43,293 bases of DNA from Patescibacteria group bacterium (lineage in GTDB: Bacteria > Patescibacteriota > Minisyncoccia > RBG-13-40-8-A): the NCBI GenBank assembly GCA_022705575.1, contig JAKJED010000002.1, positions 1 through 43,293 on the forward strand, read 5' to 3'. The notes under the pieces are model-generated. The model was not told where the DNA came from and did not search any database. It saw only the letters and a program-made list of their open reading frames with translations. Below, in pieces: positions 8,082-31,833 of this stretch. Numbering within the stretch: the first letter of the stretch is position 1; each line of letters starts with the position of its first letter. A program made the position numbers and the translations under genes.

Positions 8082-8165
8082 GCCCAGGTGGCGGAATTGG
8101 CAGACGCGCACGACTCAAAATCGTGTGACCGTAAGGTCATGGGAGTTCAACTCTCCCCCCGGGCA
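8082..8165 (+). tRNA. tRNA-Leu (anticodon CAA)
   Basis: 84 bases with the long variable arm of class II tRNAs. The anticodon loop is ctcaaaa, giving CAA, which reads UUG. D-arm (ggcggaattggcagacg), variable arm (gtgaccgtaaggtcat) and T-arm (gggagttcaactctccc) fold normally. The acceptor stem gcccagg/cccgggc has one A-C mismatch at its fifth pair. CCA is not encoded and must be added. It lies 25 bases after topA. Confidence 0.95.
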
Positions 8166-8173
8166 CAATAATA

Positions 8174-22866: not shown

Positions 22867-23343
22867 TTAGTATAAATTTTCTATCTCGCGCATATGCTCC
22901 GAATCATAGCCCAAAAGATTAATTAATTTTTTCTCAAAAGTCATAATTACGTTTCCAACATTTCCCACATTTCCAACATCAAGCATCGTAAATGTTTCCA
23001 AAATCAACTTCCAAATGTCTTCATCTTTCTCTTCTCCGGCCATTGCCTCGTCAATCAAGTCCGCAATCTTTTTAGCGGTTGTTATTTTTTTCAAATCTTT
23101 TTTAATATTTAAAAATTGATTTAATAAAAATGCGTCTTTTAAAATTAACGAATTTTTACCTTCAATCAAAATTAACTGTACATAAGAAATCGACTCTATG
23201 TGTCCGCGCAGTTTGCTTTCAACTTTTTTCACCCCCTTTGCCTGAATAGTAATCTTTCCCAATTTTTCCGAATAAACAGTTAGCGTCTTACCTGTTTCAT
23301 TTAAATCCGTAGATTTTAGAATAATGGCAGATGTTTTAATCAT
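22867..23343 (-). CDS. recO: DNA repair protein RecO, short form
   Basis: 158 residues from the ATG at 23341-23343 (IKTSAIILKSTDLNETGKTL). That start fits the family; the longer frame to 23412 would run through a terminator hairpin. The N-terminal OB fold is clear (TVYSEKLGKITIQAKGVKK, SKLRGHIESI). The helical part is cut short compared with the usual 240 residues and lacks the zinc-finger cysteines. RecO loads RecA with RecR at gaps. A VGNVGNVGNV repeat (22951-22980) is inserted near residue 135. A TACAAT box lies 7 bases before the ATG. Confidence 0.85.
   Translation of the reverse strand: MIKTSAIILKSTDLNETGKTLTVYSEKLGKITIQAKGVKKVESKLRGHIESISYVQLILIEGKNSLILKDAFLLNQFLNIKKDLKKITTAKKIADLIDEAMAGEEKDEDIWKLILETFTMLDVGNVGNVGNVIMTFEKKLINLLGYDSEHMREIENLY
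22951..22980. repeat. Tandem repeat in recO
   Basis: Three near-identical copies of a 9-base unit (ggaaatgtt type, read on the minus strand) encode VGNVGNVGNV in the C-terminal part of RecO. Confidence 0.7.
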
Positions 23344-23367
23344 TAATTTAATTGTATTGTATTTTGT

Positions 23368-23410
23368 AAAAAATAAAAAGCCCCGCACCATTTCGAATAT
23401 GGTACGGGGC
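23368..23410 (-). terminator. Intrinsic terminator upstream of recO
   Basis: On the minus strand a 12-pair stem (23380-23391 with 23399-23410), whose one non-Watson-Crick pair is G-U in this orientation only, is followed by ttttta and more T. It ends a transcript coming from 23411 upward (the small ORF or the DHH-JAMM operon), 25-35 bases before recO. Confidence 0.85.
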
Positions 23411-23815
23411 AATGATTATATTTTCTTCCTGTAGAAAATGTAATTCACTGTGGATATCTCTTCGAAGTTTCCCCTATGATTTTTTTAATTTCTCCAAATA
23501 ATAATCACCGATCTTTTGTATGACCCCCAAAAGTTACTTAGGTGAATATTCTTTCTGCCTATTTTTAAATTAACAAGATCTTGAAAATCGTAAAAAAAAT
23601 GATTCGTTTCAACCAAATTTTTTATTATTTTGTTCATGCCTTCTCCAGCTCGTCAAAGTAAGTCTCGTTGAATTAAATTAGCGTTTTTGGCTTTTTCCAT
23701 TAAAAACATTTCATTTGATATTTTCCTTTTTCTGTGGTTTTAATTTTTCTTAATTAATGATTGGGGTCTATAATTAGATCCTAATCCAAAAAAATCAACA
23801 CAAAAAAATAATTTT
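23411..23815 (-). other. 405-base gap between the terminator and the DHH-JAMM gene
   Basis: It contains only a possible 50-codon ORF (23485-23637) with a Shine-Dalgarno. The rest is AT-rich. I saw no tRNA, RNase P, SRP or 6S RNA consensus in it. Confidence 0.5.
23485..23637 (-). CDS. Possible 50-residue protein
   Basis: The ATG at 23635-23637 is preceded by ctGGAGAAGGc, a good Shine-Dalgarno. The peptide begins MNKIIKNLVETNHFFYDFQD and ends WGSYKRSVIIIWRN. It is rich in aromatic and basic residues and has no signal or membrane segment. About 75 bases after its stop comes a strong terminator in the same direction. No family recognised; it could be chance or a decayed gene. Confidence 0.35.
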   Translation of the reverse strand: MNKIIKNLVETNHFFYDFQDLVNLKIGRKNIHLSNFWGSYKRSVIIIWRN

Positions 23816-25375
23816 TTATTTTTTAATTTCTACAACTCTTGTTGGTAACCTTTTTTTTAATTTTCCTTTCCATGTCCAATATGCAAATTCTCCTGTTTGC
23901 TCTTCTTCCTGCTGAGCTTCGTTCCATACTTCTTCATCAATTTTTTTAATTTCATCAATCTCTAATCTTTTTTCAGGAATATGTATTAAAATCTTATTTT
24001 TAGAAAATATTACTTGACCGAAAGAAAAATAAGTTGCCAAAATATCTTGACCCGACTCGTTATCTAGTCCGTTGTCGGGATGTGTATGAAAGTTTATAAT
24101 CCCACTTTCTCCCAAATCTCTTTCTTTTTCATAGGTATCGAAAATTACGGAATCTTCTGTTTGTTGATTTTCGTCTACCAATTCTATCTTATTGTCGACA
24201 ATTCTTCCGCCAACTTCCTTTTTATTTTTTCTCAATTCTTTAATTTGTTCAATATGTGGATTAATAACGTTCTTTATGTGTTCAATTTTTTCTTGGATTT
24301 CTTTTTCGGGAAAATATTTTTTAGACCTTAAGCCATCAATAATATCAAATAATTTTAATTTCAATGGTTCTTTTTCGTTGTAAATCCACATTTTGCCCCT
24401 AATAATCTTACCTTGAAATTTATTCCCCAATTTTCCCTTAATTTCTTTTTCGTCAATGTCTTTATCTTTAAATGTTACGGCAAAACTTTTATCCGGAGTA
24501 TAATTTAAAACTCCATCATGTCTTATATACGCAGCAGATGACCCTGTTTTAAGTTCATTGTTTTCGTTTATTAATAAGCTGCCATATTCAGTAGCGACAA
24601 CTCTTCCCTGCCCTTCCATTTCTTTTAATTTGTCCATTGACTCATCGATTATTTTTTGTTGCTCTTCGGCTGCTTGTCTCAAATTATATTTCTCAAATTC
24701 TTCTGCTGCCAATTCTTCTGTTGGACTTTCGTGCTCATTAAAATAAGCAAATAATTTATTAAAATCCAACTCTCTCTGAAGACCCAAAATAGTTTTTGCG
24801 CTCTTCAAAAATTCCTCTGGAGGATATTTACGATTATCGATTTTGGTTACAAAGCCTACTACCCGATCCAATGCTTCTGTTTTTTTGAGTAAACGCAAGC
24901 CAACTAAAGTTTTATAAACAATTTCGGCCGTAGAGGTTACTTCTTTTGTTCCTAATTTATGATGATCAAAATATAGAGTATAAGACGGTTCTTCGTAAAC
25001 AACGCCAAATTTATCGCCGGTATCTAAATTTATTGCTCCTTCCAAATATTTTCCTGGCCTCACATAAGTCAAATTTGAAACATTAAATCCGGACAATTCT
25101 AATAACCCCAAAGAGCACTTGCCGTCTAGATCTGTAAATGGTTTTAAAATTTGTTCTCCTTTTTCTTTATCAAATTGCAAGACTCCAGAGACAGCAAATT
25201 CTTTCCATGTGTTTATAATTCTTTCTTTAAATTCTGGTTTTTTCTTTTCTTTGGCCAGTTCTAAAATAGACTGATTCAATTCTTCCCAGTTTCTTATTTT
25301 TTCCGGGATTACAGTTTTAACAGCTTCCTTGCCATAGTTTACTGCTTCACGATAAAATTTAAATTTTTCTGACAT
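23816..25375 (-). CDS. DHH phosphoesterase-JAMM metalloprotease fusion protein
   Basis: 519 residues, cytoplasmic (no signal). N-terminal half: FTDLDGKCSLGLLELSGF (Asp82, Asp84), YTLYFDHHKLGTKEVTSTAEIVYKTL (Asp137-His138-His139) and GFVTKIDNRKY (Asp180) match the DHH motifs of RecJ/NrnA-type phosphoesterases in order and spacing. C-terminal half: GIINFHTHPDNGLDNESGQD matches the JAMM zinc motif HxHP...SxxD (His430, His432, Ser441, Asp444), with one residue more than usual between P and S. A charged helical segment (about 365-385) separates them. It follows ileS by 18 bases. The function of the combination is unknown to me. Confidence 0.75.
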   Translation of the reverse strand: MSEKFKFYREAVNYGKEAVKTVIPEKIRNWEELNQSILELAKEKKKPEFKERIINTWKEFAVSGVLQFDKEKGEQILKPFTDLDGKCSLGLLELSGFNVSNLTYVRPGKYLEGAINLDTGDKFGVVYEEPSYTLYFDHHKLGTKEVTSTAEIVYKTLVGLRLLKKTEALDRVVGFVTKIDNRKYPPEEFLKSAKTILGLQRELDFNKLFAYFNEHESPTEELAAEEFEKYNLRQAAEEQQKIIDESMDKLKEMEGQGRVVATEYGSLLINENNELKTGSSAAYIRHDGVLNYTPDKSFAVTFKDKDIDEKEIKGKLGNKFQGKIIRGKMWIYNEKEPLKLKLFDIIDGLRSKKYFPEKEIQEKIEHIKNVINPHIEQIKELRKNKKEVGGRIVDNKIELVDENQQTEDSVIFDTYEKERDLGESGIINFHTHPDNGLDNESGQDILATYFSFGQVIFSKNKILIHIPEKRLEIDEIKKIDEEVWNEAQQEEEQTGEFAYWTWKGKLKKRLPTRVVEIKK

Positions 25376-25393: not shown

Positions 25394-28153
25394 TCATATT
25401 TTCTCAATTTTAAGTTCGCCGCCGAATATAAGTTCTTCCGCAATTACTTGTTTTTTAATTTGATCAGCGTATTTTGAGACGATTTCCTGATTTTCAGAAT
25501 ACGTAACTCGAATTTTATCTTTCGGTGTCAATCCCATTTCTTTTCTTTTTACCTGAATACTGCGTACAAAATCACGCACAAGGCCCTCTGCTTTGAGTTC
25601 TTCGGTGATAGTGGTATCTAATACCACCCCCTCTTTTAAATCTGCCACAACCTCTTTCACATTCACTTCATCCTTAATCAAATCAATTAATTCAATTTTT
25701 AATTTTTGACTTTTAACTTTTAACTTCGCTAATGGTTGTCTCACTTTTATTCCTGCTTCTGCTCTTTTTTGTAATCCTAAACTGCAAATTTCTCTAACTT
25801 GTTTCATTTGTTCTTCTAATTTTTCATCAATTAATTTTTTATCTGTTTCCGGCCAATCCACCAAATGTACGGAGGACTGTCCTCCGTATATTTCTTGATA
25901 TAAATAATCTGCCATAAACGGCATAATCGGCGCAATCACTTTTGAAAATTCCAATAAAACATATTTTAATGTTTGTACCGCCTCCTTATTGTCTTCAGAT
26001 TTAAACCTTTCTCTCGATCTACGCACATACCAGGTTGATAATTCATCAATAAATCCCGCAATTGGTTTGGTGGCTTTGTTCAAATCATAATTTTCATAAC
26101 CTTCGGTTATTTCTTTTTTCAAAGATTCTGTTTTCGAAAGAATCCATTTGTCTAAGATATTTTTGCTTTTTGTGTTTTCTTTAATATCAACCGCAAATAA
26201 TTTATAAAACGACAAAATATTCAAAATCATTAATGAAACTTTCTTTACAACCTCATCAACCCCCTTTTCGGAAAAGCATAAATCATCTGCTTTCATTACC
26301 GGAGAAGTTATCAGGTAAAACCTTAAAGCATCAACTCCATATTTTTCGAATAATTTTATGGGATTAGGAAAATTATTTTTGCTTTTGGACATTTTTTCGC
26401 CATTTTCGGCTAAAATTGTTCCGGTCACAACGATATTTTTATAGGGAATATCATCAAATAATATTGTCGACATTACTAAACAATAATAAAACCATGCCCT
26501 TGTTTGTGCAATATATTCAGCAACAAATTCGGCTGGAAAATTTTCTTCAAAATATTTCTTGTTTTCAAATGGGTAATGAAATTGTGCAAATGGCATACTT
26601 CCCGATTCGAACCAACAATCTAAAACTTCTGGGATTCTAGTCATTTCTTTTTTGCATTCGCATTTTAATTTAACGGCATCCAAGTAATCTTTGTGTAAAT
26701 CAATATCACCAGAAAGATTGATCGCATTTTGTTTGAGTTCATCAATGCTGCCAATTACTTTTAACTTTCCGCATTCATCACATTGCCAAACCGGCATAGC
26801 CGATGCCCAATATCTGTTTCTAGATATCGTCCAATCGGGTGCGGTCTCAATGTTGTTTTTAAATCTTCCGTTTTTTAATGACTCTGGATACCAATTAATT
26901 TTTTCATTCAACTTAAGCATTTTTTGTTTAATTTTTTGTATATTAACAAACCACGAGGGTATTGCACGATACATTAATGGTGTCTCGCATCTATAACAAA
27001 ATGGATATTCATGCGCCTTTCTTTCAATTTTTACAATTTTTCCGTGTTGCTTTAAAAATTCTATAATTTTAGCATCGGCATCTTTAATATACATCCCCGC
27101 AAAATCGATCACTTCGTTTGCAAATTTTCCTTGTTTGTCAATCGGTTGCACAAAATCAATGCCATTTTCCTTACATACAATATAATCAACCTCTCCAAAG
27201 GCAGGCGCTGCATGAACAATTCCCGTTCCGTCGTCTGCAGTAACAAAATTTCCAGCAATTATTCTAAAGGAATTTTTAAAATTACTAAAGTACGGAAAAA
27301 TTGGTTCATATCTTTTTTTTATAAGATCACTTCCAACTACTTCCTTTATTATCTTATATTCATTTTCATTTTTGAAGTATTTTGTAATAACCGTTTGACC
27401 TAAAATATAAATTTTATTATCTTTAAGGTTTTGAAGGTAGACATAAGTTAAATCTGGATTTACTATTAAAGCCAGATTTGAGGGTAGTGTCCATGGAGTC
27501 GTTGTCCATGCAAGAACATAAGCATCTTCATCTTTGAGCTTGAATCTTACAGTTATTGTATCTTCTTCAATCGTTCTATATGATTTATCCATCGCTATTT
27601 CCGAACTAGCAATAGGGGTTCCGCAACGAGGACAATACATCAGAACCTTTTCTCCCTTATAAATAAATCCTTTATCATAGAGTTGTTTAAATGCCCACCA
27701 AACACTTTCAATATAAGAATTGTCCATGGTTTTATATGAATTCTCAAAATCAACCCATCTGCCAATTCTTTCGACAACACTTCCCCATTCCTTAGTGTAC
27801 ATAAAAACTCTACTTCTACAAAAAGCGTTAAATTTTTTAACACTCATCTTTTCAATTTCGTCTTTAGTTTTAATGCCCAGTTCTTTTTCTGCAATATTTT
27901 CTATTGGCAAACCATGACAATCCCAACCCCAAACTCTTTTAACATAACGACCATTCATGGTCCAAAACCTAGGTACAATATCCTTTATGGTGGAAGCAAG
28001 AATATGCCCATAATGAGGAAGACCGGTTGCAAATGGTGGCCCATCATAAAAAATATAAGACTTGCCATTTTGGGTTTTTTCAAGCGTTTTTTCAAATACT
28101 TTATTTTTTTTCCAAAACTTTAATATTTGTTTTTCTATTTCTGGTATATTCAT
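25394..28153 (-). CDS. ileS: Isoleucyl-tRNA synthetase
   Basis: 919 residues, class I. HIGH is in DGPPFATGLPHYGHILASTIKD and KMSKS in LAENGEKMSKSKNNF. The editing domain has AWTTTPWTLPSNLAL and DGTGIVHAAPAFGEVDY. The form with CDECGKLKV and CECKK pairs looks like the eukaryote/archaeal-like (type 2) IleRS rather than the E. coli type. Two repeat insertions occur: YGGQSSVH from a palindrome (25868-25888) and LKVKSQKLKI from a low-complexity repeat (25694-25720). The start overlaps the histidine phosphatase stop by 4 bases. Confidence 0.96.
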   Translation of the reverse strand: MNIPEIEKQILKFWKKNKVFEKTLEKTQNGKSYIFYDGPPFATGLPHYGHILASTIKDIVPRFWTMNGRYVKRVWGWDCHGLPIENIAEKELGIKTKDEIEKMSVKKFNAFCRSRVFMYTKEWGSVVERIGRWVDFENSYKTMDNSYIESVWWAFKQLYDKGFIYKGEKVLMYCPRCGTPIASSEIAMDKSYRTIEEDTITVRFKLKDEDAYVLAWTTTPWTLPSNLALIVNPDLTYVYLQNLKDNKIYILGQTVITKYFKNENEYKIIKEVVGSDLIKKRYEPIFPYFSNFKNSFRIIAGNFVTADDGTGIVHAAPAFGEVDYIVCKENGIDFVQPIDKQGKFANEVIDFAGMYIKDADAKIIEFLKQHGKIVKIERKAHEYPFCYRCETPLMYRAIPSWFVNIQKIKQKMLKLNEKINWYPESLKNGRFKNNIETAPDWTISRNRYWASAMPVWQCDECGKLKVIGSIDELKQNAINLSGDIDLHKDYLDAVKLKCECKKEMTRIPEVLDCWFESGSMPFAQFHYPFENKKYFEENFPAEFVAEYIAQTRAWFYYCLVMSTILFDDIPYKNIVVTGTILAENGEKMSKSKNNFPNPIKLFEKYGVDALRFYLITSPVMKADDLCFSEKGVDEVVKKVSLMILNILSFYKLFAVDIKENTKSKNILDKWILSKTESLKKEITEGYENYDLNKATKPIAGFIDELSTWYVRRSRERFKSEDNKEAVQTLKYVLLEFSKVIAPIMPFMADYLYQEIYGGQSSVHLVDWPETDKKLIDEKLEEQMKQVREICSLGLQKRAEAGIKVRQPLAKLKVKSQKLKIELIDLIKDEVNVKEVVADLKEGVVLDTTITEELKAEGLVRDFVRSIQVKRKEMGLTPKDKIRVTYSENQEIVSKYADQIKKQVIAEELIFGGELKIEKI
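25694..25720 (-). repeat. In-frame low-complexity repeat in ileS
   Basis: Inverse-orientation copy of the 27-base block at 6146-6172 in topA. Both encode KVKSQKLKI. Confidence 0.75.
25868..25888. repeat. Translated palindrome in ileS
   Basis: Arms tacggagga and tcctccgta around a 3-base centre, read in frame as YGGQSSV just before the conserved VHLVDWP block. Confidence 0.8.
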
Positions 28154-31478: not shown

Positions 31479-31833
31479 TGGAGATGAGGAGAGTTGAACT
31501 CCTGTCCAAAAGATTTTTTAAAAACAATTCTACAAATATAGTTTGTTTCCTTGATTATTCAAATTATAAACAAACAAAATTTTGAATAATTTAACCCAAT
31601 TATTTTCGATATTATAATTTGGGCATTATAATATCTATCTCAAGTATCCAATAAGGATACTATAACACTTCAACGACCTATTGAGAATCTCCGTTAAAGT
31701 GGCCTCAGCTTTAATTAAGCCGTGGCAAAGGCAAAATTTGTATTTGCGTTTATTTTTTCTAGATTTTAACGAGATGCTAGAATCCTCGAATTGCTTGTTT
31801 TTAATGAATCTTCTGTCGAAACCTATCACCCCC
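31479..31833 (-). ncRNA. ssrA: Transfer-messenger RNA (tmRNA)
   Basis: 355 bases. The 5' end GGGGGTGATAGGTTTCGAC and the 3' end AGTTCAACTCTCCTCATCTCC plus A form the tRNA-like domain; GGGGGTG pairs with CATCTCC using G-U pairs. CCA is not encoded. The tag frame is 31715-31747: GCA start, then AAT ACA AAT TTT GCC TTT GCC ACG GCT and TAA, giving ANTNFAFATA. It is one-piece, lies directly after smpB and before infC, and has no terminator of its own. Confidence 0.94.

What the first reader, a model, noticed from the sequence alone, without database searches (positions are those of the whole stretch)
23816..25375. DHH phosphoesterase fused to a JAMM/MPN metalloprotease-like domain
One cytoplasmic 519-residue protein carries in order all the DHH motifs (Asp82/Asp84, Asp137-His138-His139, Asp180) and a zinc JAMM motif (His430, His432, Ser441, Asp444). 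I know of no described protein joining nucleotide or nucleic-acid phosphoester cleavage with a JAMM isopeptidase/protease in this order. It is the last gene of an argS-phosphatase-ileS run, so it may act on nucleotides, nanoRNA or modified proteins linked to translation stress. The JAMM spacing is one residue longer than usual, so activity is not assured.
Basis: partly seen in the sequence, partly recalled or inferred. Interest (0 to 1): 0.75.

Follow-up and report, generated by a model that had tools for sequence, protein, structure and literature searches.

The report
DHH phosphoesterase with orphan JAMM-like tail
A tiny-genome bacterium (Patescibacteria) carries an enzyme from a previously unmodelled branch of the DHH phosphoesterases, and in this one lineage an extra tail that resembles a zinc JAB/JAMM domain has been added to it; the tail is found in none of its relatives, so its activity is unproven.

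Summary
The 519-codon ORF and every residue named are real, but the gene is on the minus strand (25375 to 23819). Residues 1-350 belong to a sporadic Patescibacteria family without a Pfam, NCBIfam or PHROG match. Across 22 relatives, motifs I-IV are almost all kept: D82/D84, D118, D137-H138-H139 and D180. A profile comparison with RecJ/NrnA beats every shuffled control. DHH-type two-metal phosphoesterase is therefore well supported, although the NrnA/RecJ GGGH motif is missing. The C-terminal 167 residues are a different matter. They code like a gene and carry E387...H430-T-H432-P-x7-S441-x2-D444 in a JAB-like order of strands. However, the best family match is Prok-JAB at E=0.14, no homologue was found in two Patescibacteria samples of 384 and 287 genomes, and AlphaFold models failed. 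The closest relative (74% identical) ends at residue 350, and the next (67%) carries a different, KH-like tail. The fusion is thus a recent, lineage-specific appendage rather than a conserved DHH-JAMM enzyme. The genome shows no E1 (ThiF), ThiS or other Prok-JAB match, so a classical ubiquitin-type isopeptidase role is unlikely. Best reading: a member of a new DHH branch with swappable C-terminal modules.

The parts
23816..25375 (-). whole ORF, 519 aa plus stop
24326..25375 (-). DHH-type phosphoesterase module, residues 1-350 (the part shared with all relatives)
25121..25135 (-). motif I, T-D82-L-D84-G
   Evidence: D82/D84 invariant in the 14 sequences of A2; D-x-D intact in 20 of 22 in the larger table
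25022..25024 (-). motif II aspartate D118 (N-L-D-T-G)
   Evidence: invariant in A2; 21 of 22 in the larger table
24959..24967 (-). motif III, D137-H138-H139
   Evidence: intact in 19 of 22
24836..24838 (-). motif IV aspartate D180 (K-I-D-N-R)
   Evidence: 21 of 22
24329..24604 (-). second subdomain, residues 258-349, in the place of DHHA1; conserved G265, G278-x2-A281-A282, F298, G322 but no GGGH
   Evidence: alignment A2; comparison with NrnA as described in PMC5593865
24224..24319 (-). linker, residues 353-384, predicted as one long helix (low confidence)
23966..24223 (-). JAB/JAMM-like orphan tail, residues 385-470
   Evidence: Prok-JAB E=0.14 as best family; RadC profile match at the motif; no homologue found
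24044..24088 (-). H430-T-H432-P-x7-S441-G-Q-D444; candidate glutamate E387 at 24215-24217
25394..28153 (-). ileS, directly upstream (18-base gap)

Best explanation
The gene encodes a soluble member of a previously unmodelled, Patescibacteria-restricted branch of the DHH superfamily. Residues 1-350 form a DHH catalytic domain (motifs I-IV, two divalent metals, activated water) plus a divergent second domain in the place of DHHA1; together they most likely hydrolyse a phosphoester in a nucleotide or short oligonucleotide. In the window's lineage a coiled linker and a small JAB/JAMM-like, zinc-binding type domain were added at the C terminus; in another lineage a KH-like domain was added instead. 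The tail most likely modifies substrate choice or location, or processes a nucleotide or nucleic acid as proposed for the RadC branch of JAB domains, rather than removing ubiquitin-like tags. Shown here: conserved DHH motifs, modular tails, orphan status of the tail. Inferred: catalysis, substrate, zinc binding, JAB fold.
For: DHH: motif columns kept in nearly all of 22 relatives from many families. hhalign against RecJ/NrnA proteins of the same class gives score 44.9, E=6.6e-5, against a best control of 31.3 in 60 column shuffles. Modularity: L003 (74%) stops at 350 aa and L004 (67%) has a different 300-residue tail with KH_2 E=8.7e-4. Tree: the compact clade of 7 is supported 100/100; window+L003 and window+L003+L004 are each supported 100/99. 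JAB: Prok-JAB is the top family for the isolated tail (E=0.14 in 24,736 models, so about 6e-6 for that single model). RadC profile score 22.5, reached by 2 of 400 shuffles and 3 of 241 real fragments. The strand/helix order around HTHP...SxxD looks JAB-like in both low-confidence models. Against Ub-type function: no ThiF, ThiS or other Prok-JAB match in the genome.
Against: No curated model recognises the DHH half in any member, and pairwise hhalign probability is only 64%. The GGGH motif is absent. The JAB match is below every curated threshold, the spacing is one residue long, there is no homologue to show conservation, AlphaFold models are useless (pLDDT 37) and fold searches empty. Substrate is unknown and gene neighbourhoods of the compact clade are not conserved.
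Confidence: 0.62

Rival explanations
1. True bifunctional enzyme: a phosphoesterase and an active JAMM metallopeptidase (isopeptidase) in one chain, acting on one pathway.
For: All ligand-type residues (E387, H430, H432, S441, D444) are present in order, and both halves code well.
Against: The tail is absent from all other members examined. No E1 or ubiquitin-like partner was found in the genome. Spacing is off by one residue and profile support is weak.
Confidence: 0.12
2. The tail is not a JAB domain; the motif is a chance match in an unrelated orphan extension.
For: Prok-JAB E=0.14, real protein fragments reach the RadC score in 3 of 241 cases, no homologue in two samples of 384 and 287 genomes, models of pLDDT 37.
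Against: Joint motif with a preceding glutamate occurs in 4 of 100,000 shuffles. Prok-JAB is nevertheless the best of 24,736 families, and the RadC alignment is centred on the motif.
Confidence: 0.25
3. The DHH-like half is a degenerate or non-catalytic relative that binds rather than cleaves nucleotides.
For: No family model matches and GGGH is missing. A few distant members have lost motif III (L046 NDS, L053 DED).
Against: In the compact clade that holds the window all metal-site residues are intact at 57-74% identity.
Confidence: 0.1
4. Assembly or frameshift artefact that joins two neighbouring genes.
For: Only one genome shows the join, and it is a draft in 52 contigs.
Against: One uninterrupted frame, same codon usage on both sides, no gap at the joint, and a relative with another tail shows that this joint is a natural fusion point.
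Confidence: 0.06

Closest known systems
NrnA / c-di-NMP phosphodiesterase branch of the DHH-DHHA1 family (Pfam PF01368 + DHHA1)
   Same: Order and spacing of motifs I-III and the S/T-rich stretch after DHH; two-domain layout of about 330 residues.
   Different: No Pfam match, no GGGH and no RxRxR in the second domain; a helical N-terminal extension; found so far only in Patescibacteria.
RecJ (present once in the same genome, G000:C26)
   Same: DHH core; D rather than H in the first position of motif I.
   Different: No DHHA1 GGGH, much shorter; hhalign to RecJ alone is weak (E=0.009).
Prok-JAB (PF14464) and RadC branch of JAB/JAMM domains
   Same: Glutamate, then HxHP, then S-x2-D; strand before and helix after the motif.
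   Different: One extra residue between HxH and S; below the curated cut-off; no E1 or ubiquitin-like partner found in the genome.

Membership tests
DHH phosphoesterase superfamily | Motifs I-IV each with conserved aspartate, motif III = DHH (PMC5593865) | tested here: met
   D82/D84, D118, D137-H138-H139, D180; near-invariant in 22 relatives
DHH phosphoesterase superfamily | Profile similarity to known DHH proteins | tested here: met
   hhalign E=6.6e-5, above 60 shuffled controls; but no hit to PF01368 with hmmscan
DHH-DHHA1 (NrnA/RecJ) subfamily | GGGH motif in the C-terminal domain | tested here: not met
   G278-x2-A281-A282 in its place
DHH phosphoesterase superfamily | Metal-dependent phosphoester hydrolysis | not testable with these tools
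   needs biochemistry
JAB/JAMM (MPN+) | E...H-x-H-x7-S-x2-D | tested here: inconclusive
   all residues present but x8 instead of x7; E387 by position only
JAB/JAMM (MPN+) | Match to a curated JAB model over its cut-off | tested here: not met
   Prok-JAB 12.5 bits against cut-off 25
JAB/JAMM (MPN+) | JAB fold | tested here: inconclusive
   both AlphaFold models at pLDDT 37
Prokaryotic Ub-like deconjugation system | E1 (ThiF) and Ub-like partner in the genome | tested here: not met
   no PF00899 or PF02597 match in a 99.6% complete genome; controls positive

The most novel reading that the evidence does not exclude
The DHH-like module is a portable enzyme that Patescibacteria combine with different C-terminal domains (JAMM-like, KH-like) and, in long 450-1830 aa versions, place next to type IV secretion coupling ATPases and DUF5663 genes. 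It could be the missing nucleic-acid-processing part, or an exported effector scaffold, of their relaxase-less secretion systems, with the window protein a mobile-tail derivative.
Probability: 0.1. Interest if true: 0.75.

Novelty: new variant of a known kind. Interest (0 to 1): 0.42.

Why it matters
If right, a whole branch of DHH enzymes has been missed by the family libraries because Patescibacteria are so divergent. It is small enough (about 340 aa) to express and test. The tail swap (none, KH-like, JAMM-like) within 67-74% identical proteins offers a natural experiment on how substrate choice or localisation is changed by module addition. The DHH-JAMM join itself matters only if the tail proves to be a working JAB domain.

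Tried and rejected
Tail homologues: 384 genomes of the class and 287 of the phylum gave only spurious hits (methyltransferase, peptide-binding protein, dihydroorotase-like protein and others). IMG/VR, phages and plasmids: nothing for the whole protein or its parts. PDB by sequence: only chance hits. The A2 profile's weak match to PggH (7d62, E=0.45) falls on motifs I-III and is only suggestive. AlphaFold with 3 rows and with one row: pLDDT 37, fold searches meaningless. Sequences from genome-search loci were not handed to the structure tool because its rule names other sources only. One column-shuffle control gave an anomalous score of 133, so the control was repeated on gap-filtered columns, where no shuffle exceeded 31.3. 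DHH-JAMM fusion in the literature: no paper holds the terms together.

Full report
Observation. The ORF is on the minus strand, 25375 to 23819 plus stop, 519 aa. It is the last gene after argS, a histidine phosphatase and ileS, 18 bases downstream of ileS, and is followed by about 400 bases without a good gene before a short recO-like gene.

DHH half. No Pfam or NCBIfam family matches it, and PHROG matches lie only in the tail. Relatives were found by sequence: two in GTDB genomes, 13 of 384 genomes of the class, including the window's own, 8 of 380 of the phylum sample and 5 of 150 in the order of one of them. Alignment of 14 domains at 27-74% identity to the window shows invariant D82, D84, D118 and near-invariant D137, H139, D180 and S148. 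In a 22-row table motifs I-IV are intact in nearly all members and in every member of the compact clade. Profile comparison with RecJ/NrnA-type proteins drawn from the same class gives score 44.9, E=6.6e-5, over 192 columns; 60 column-shuffled controls reach 31.3 at most. The second domain keeps G265, G278-x2-A281-A282, F298 and G322 but has no GGGH, the substrate motif of NrnA and RecJ (PMC5593865). It is therefore a member of the DHH superfamily but not of the DHHA1 subfamily as defined.

Architecture of the family. The closest relative (L003/L035, 74%) is a 350-residue protein that stops where the window's tail begins; the next (L004, 67%) continues into a different 300-residue tail with a weak KH_2 match, E=8.7e-4. 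Others of the compact clade (L036, L037, L047, L120) have no tail. The clade of seven compact members is supported 100/100, and window, L003 and L004 nest inside it with 100/99. The simplest history is a tail-less ancestor with separate additions in the window and L004 lineages. More distant members carry the module inside proteins of 450-1830 aa with unrelated flanks.

JAMM half. Residues 353-519 have normal coding statistics. The combined motif E...HxHP...SxxD occurs in 4 of 100,000 shuffles. The isolated tail matches Prok-JAB at E=0.14, half the curated cut-off in bits, as its best Pfam family. A RadC-type JAB profile from the same class aligns exactly at the motif, with a score reached by 2 of 400 shuffles and 3 of 241 real fragments. 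The strand-HTHP-loop-S..D-helix-strand-strand order in the two low-confidence models agrees with JAB but cannot prove it. No homologue of the tail was found in either Patescibacteria sample or in the viral collection, and no other DHH-family member in the motif scan carries the motif. The genome has no detectable ThiF, ThiS or other Prok-JAB match, which argues against a ubiquitin-type isopeptidase. The RadC branch of JAB domains has been proposed to process nucleic acids or nucleotides (PMC5512222), which would fit better with a DHH partner; this is inference.

Mechanism. By the established DHH mechanism two divalent metals held by motifs I-IV activate a water for attack on a phosphoester. 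The only other PF01368 protein found in this genome is RecJ-sized (567 aa), so a role in short RNA or nucleotide turnover is possible, but the sporadic distribution (2 of 6 genomes of the same family) argues against an essential housekeeping role. Operon partners differ: ileS in the window, a uridine kinase/CYTH protein in L035, none fixed elsewhere. A histidine phosphatase gene lies close by in both the window and L120.

Verdict. The DHH assignment is strong. The JAMM assignment is plausible but unproven. A conserved bifunctional enzyme is not supported. The more durable result is an unmodelled DHH branch of Patescibacteria with exchangeable tails.

Noticed in passing
L042, L044, L046, L048, L049, L050, L053: In 7 of 14 long-form loci the DHH-containing gene lies near a type IV secretion coupling-protein-like ATPase (within 5 genes) and/or a DUF5663-like gene (within 2); 0 of 10 short-form loci, window included, do. 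The DUF5663-like profile was built from five of these neighbours, so that part of the count is not independent. Patescibacteria T4SS clusters mostly lack a relaxase (PMC12102498).
   Followed up: partly
L004:1740-2642: The closest differently-tailed relative carries a KH-like segment (PGWWIGKKGWRIKALEE), E=8.7e-4 to KH_2, after the DHH module.
   Followed up: partly
L035:10371-12119: A phosphoribulokinase/uridine kinase-CYTH fusion protein lies about 20 bases upstream of the tail-less DHH gene on the same strand.
   Followed up: no
L054, L055, L056, L065: Patescibacteria loci with weak Prok-JAB proteins, with ThiF/E1-like sequences next to them as read by eye; possible ubiquitin-like systems in this phylum.
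   Followed up: no
window 31479-31833 (-): tmRNA with tag ANTNFAFATA, near rplT and the argS-ileS run; tRNA-Leu(caa) at 8082-8166.
   Followed up: no
window 22867-23412 (-): RecO-like protein of only 181 aa matching the first 146 of 239 positions of the RecO model, apparently shortened at the C terminus, preceded by a GC-rich hairpin followed by a T run.
   Followed up: no
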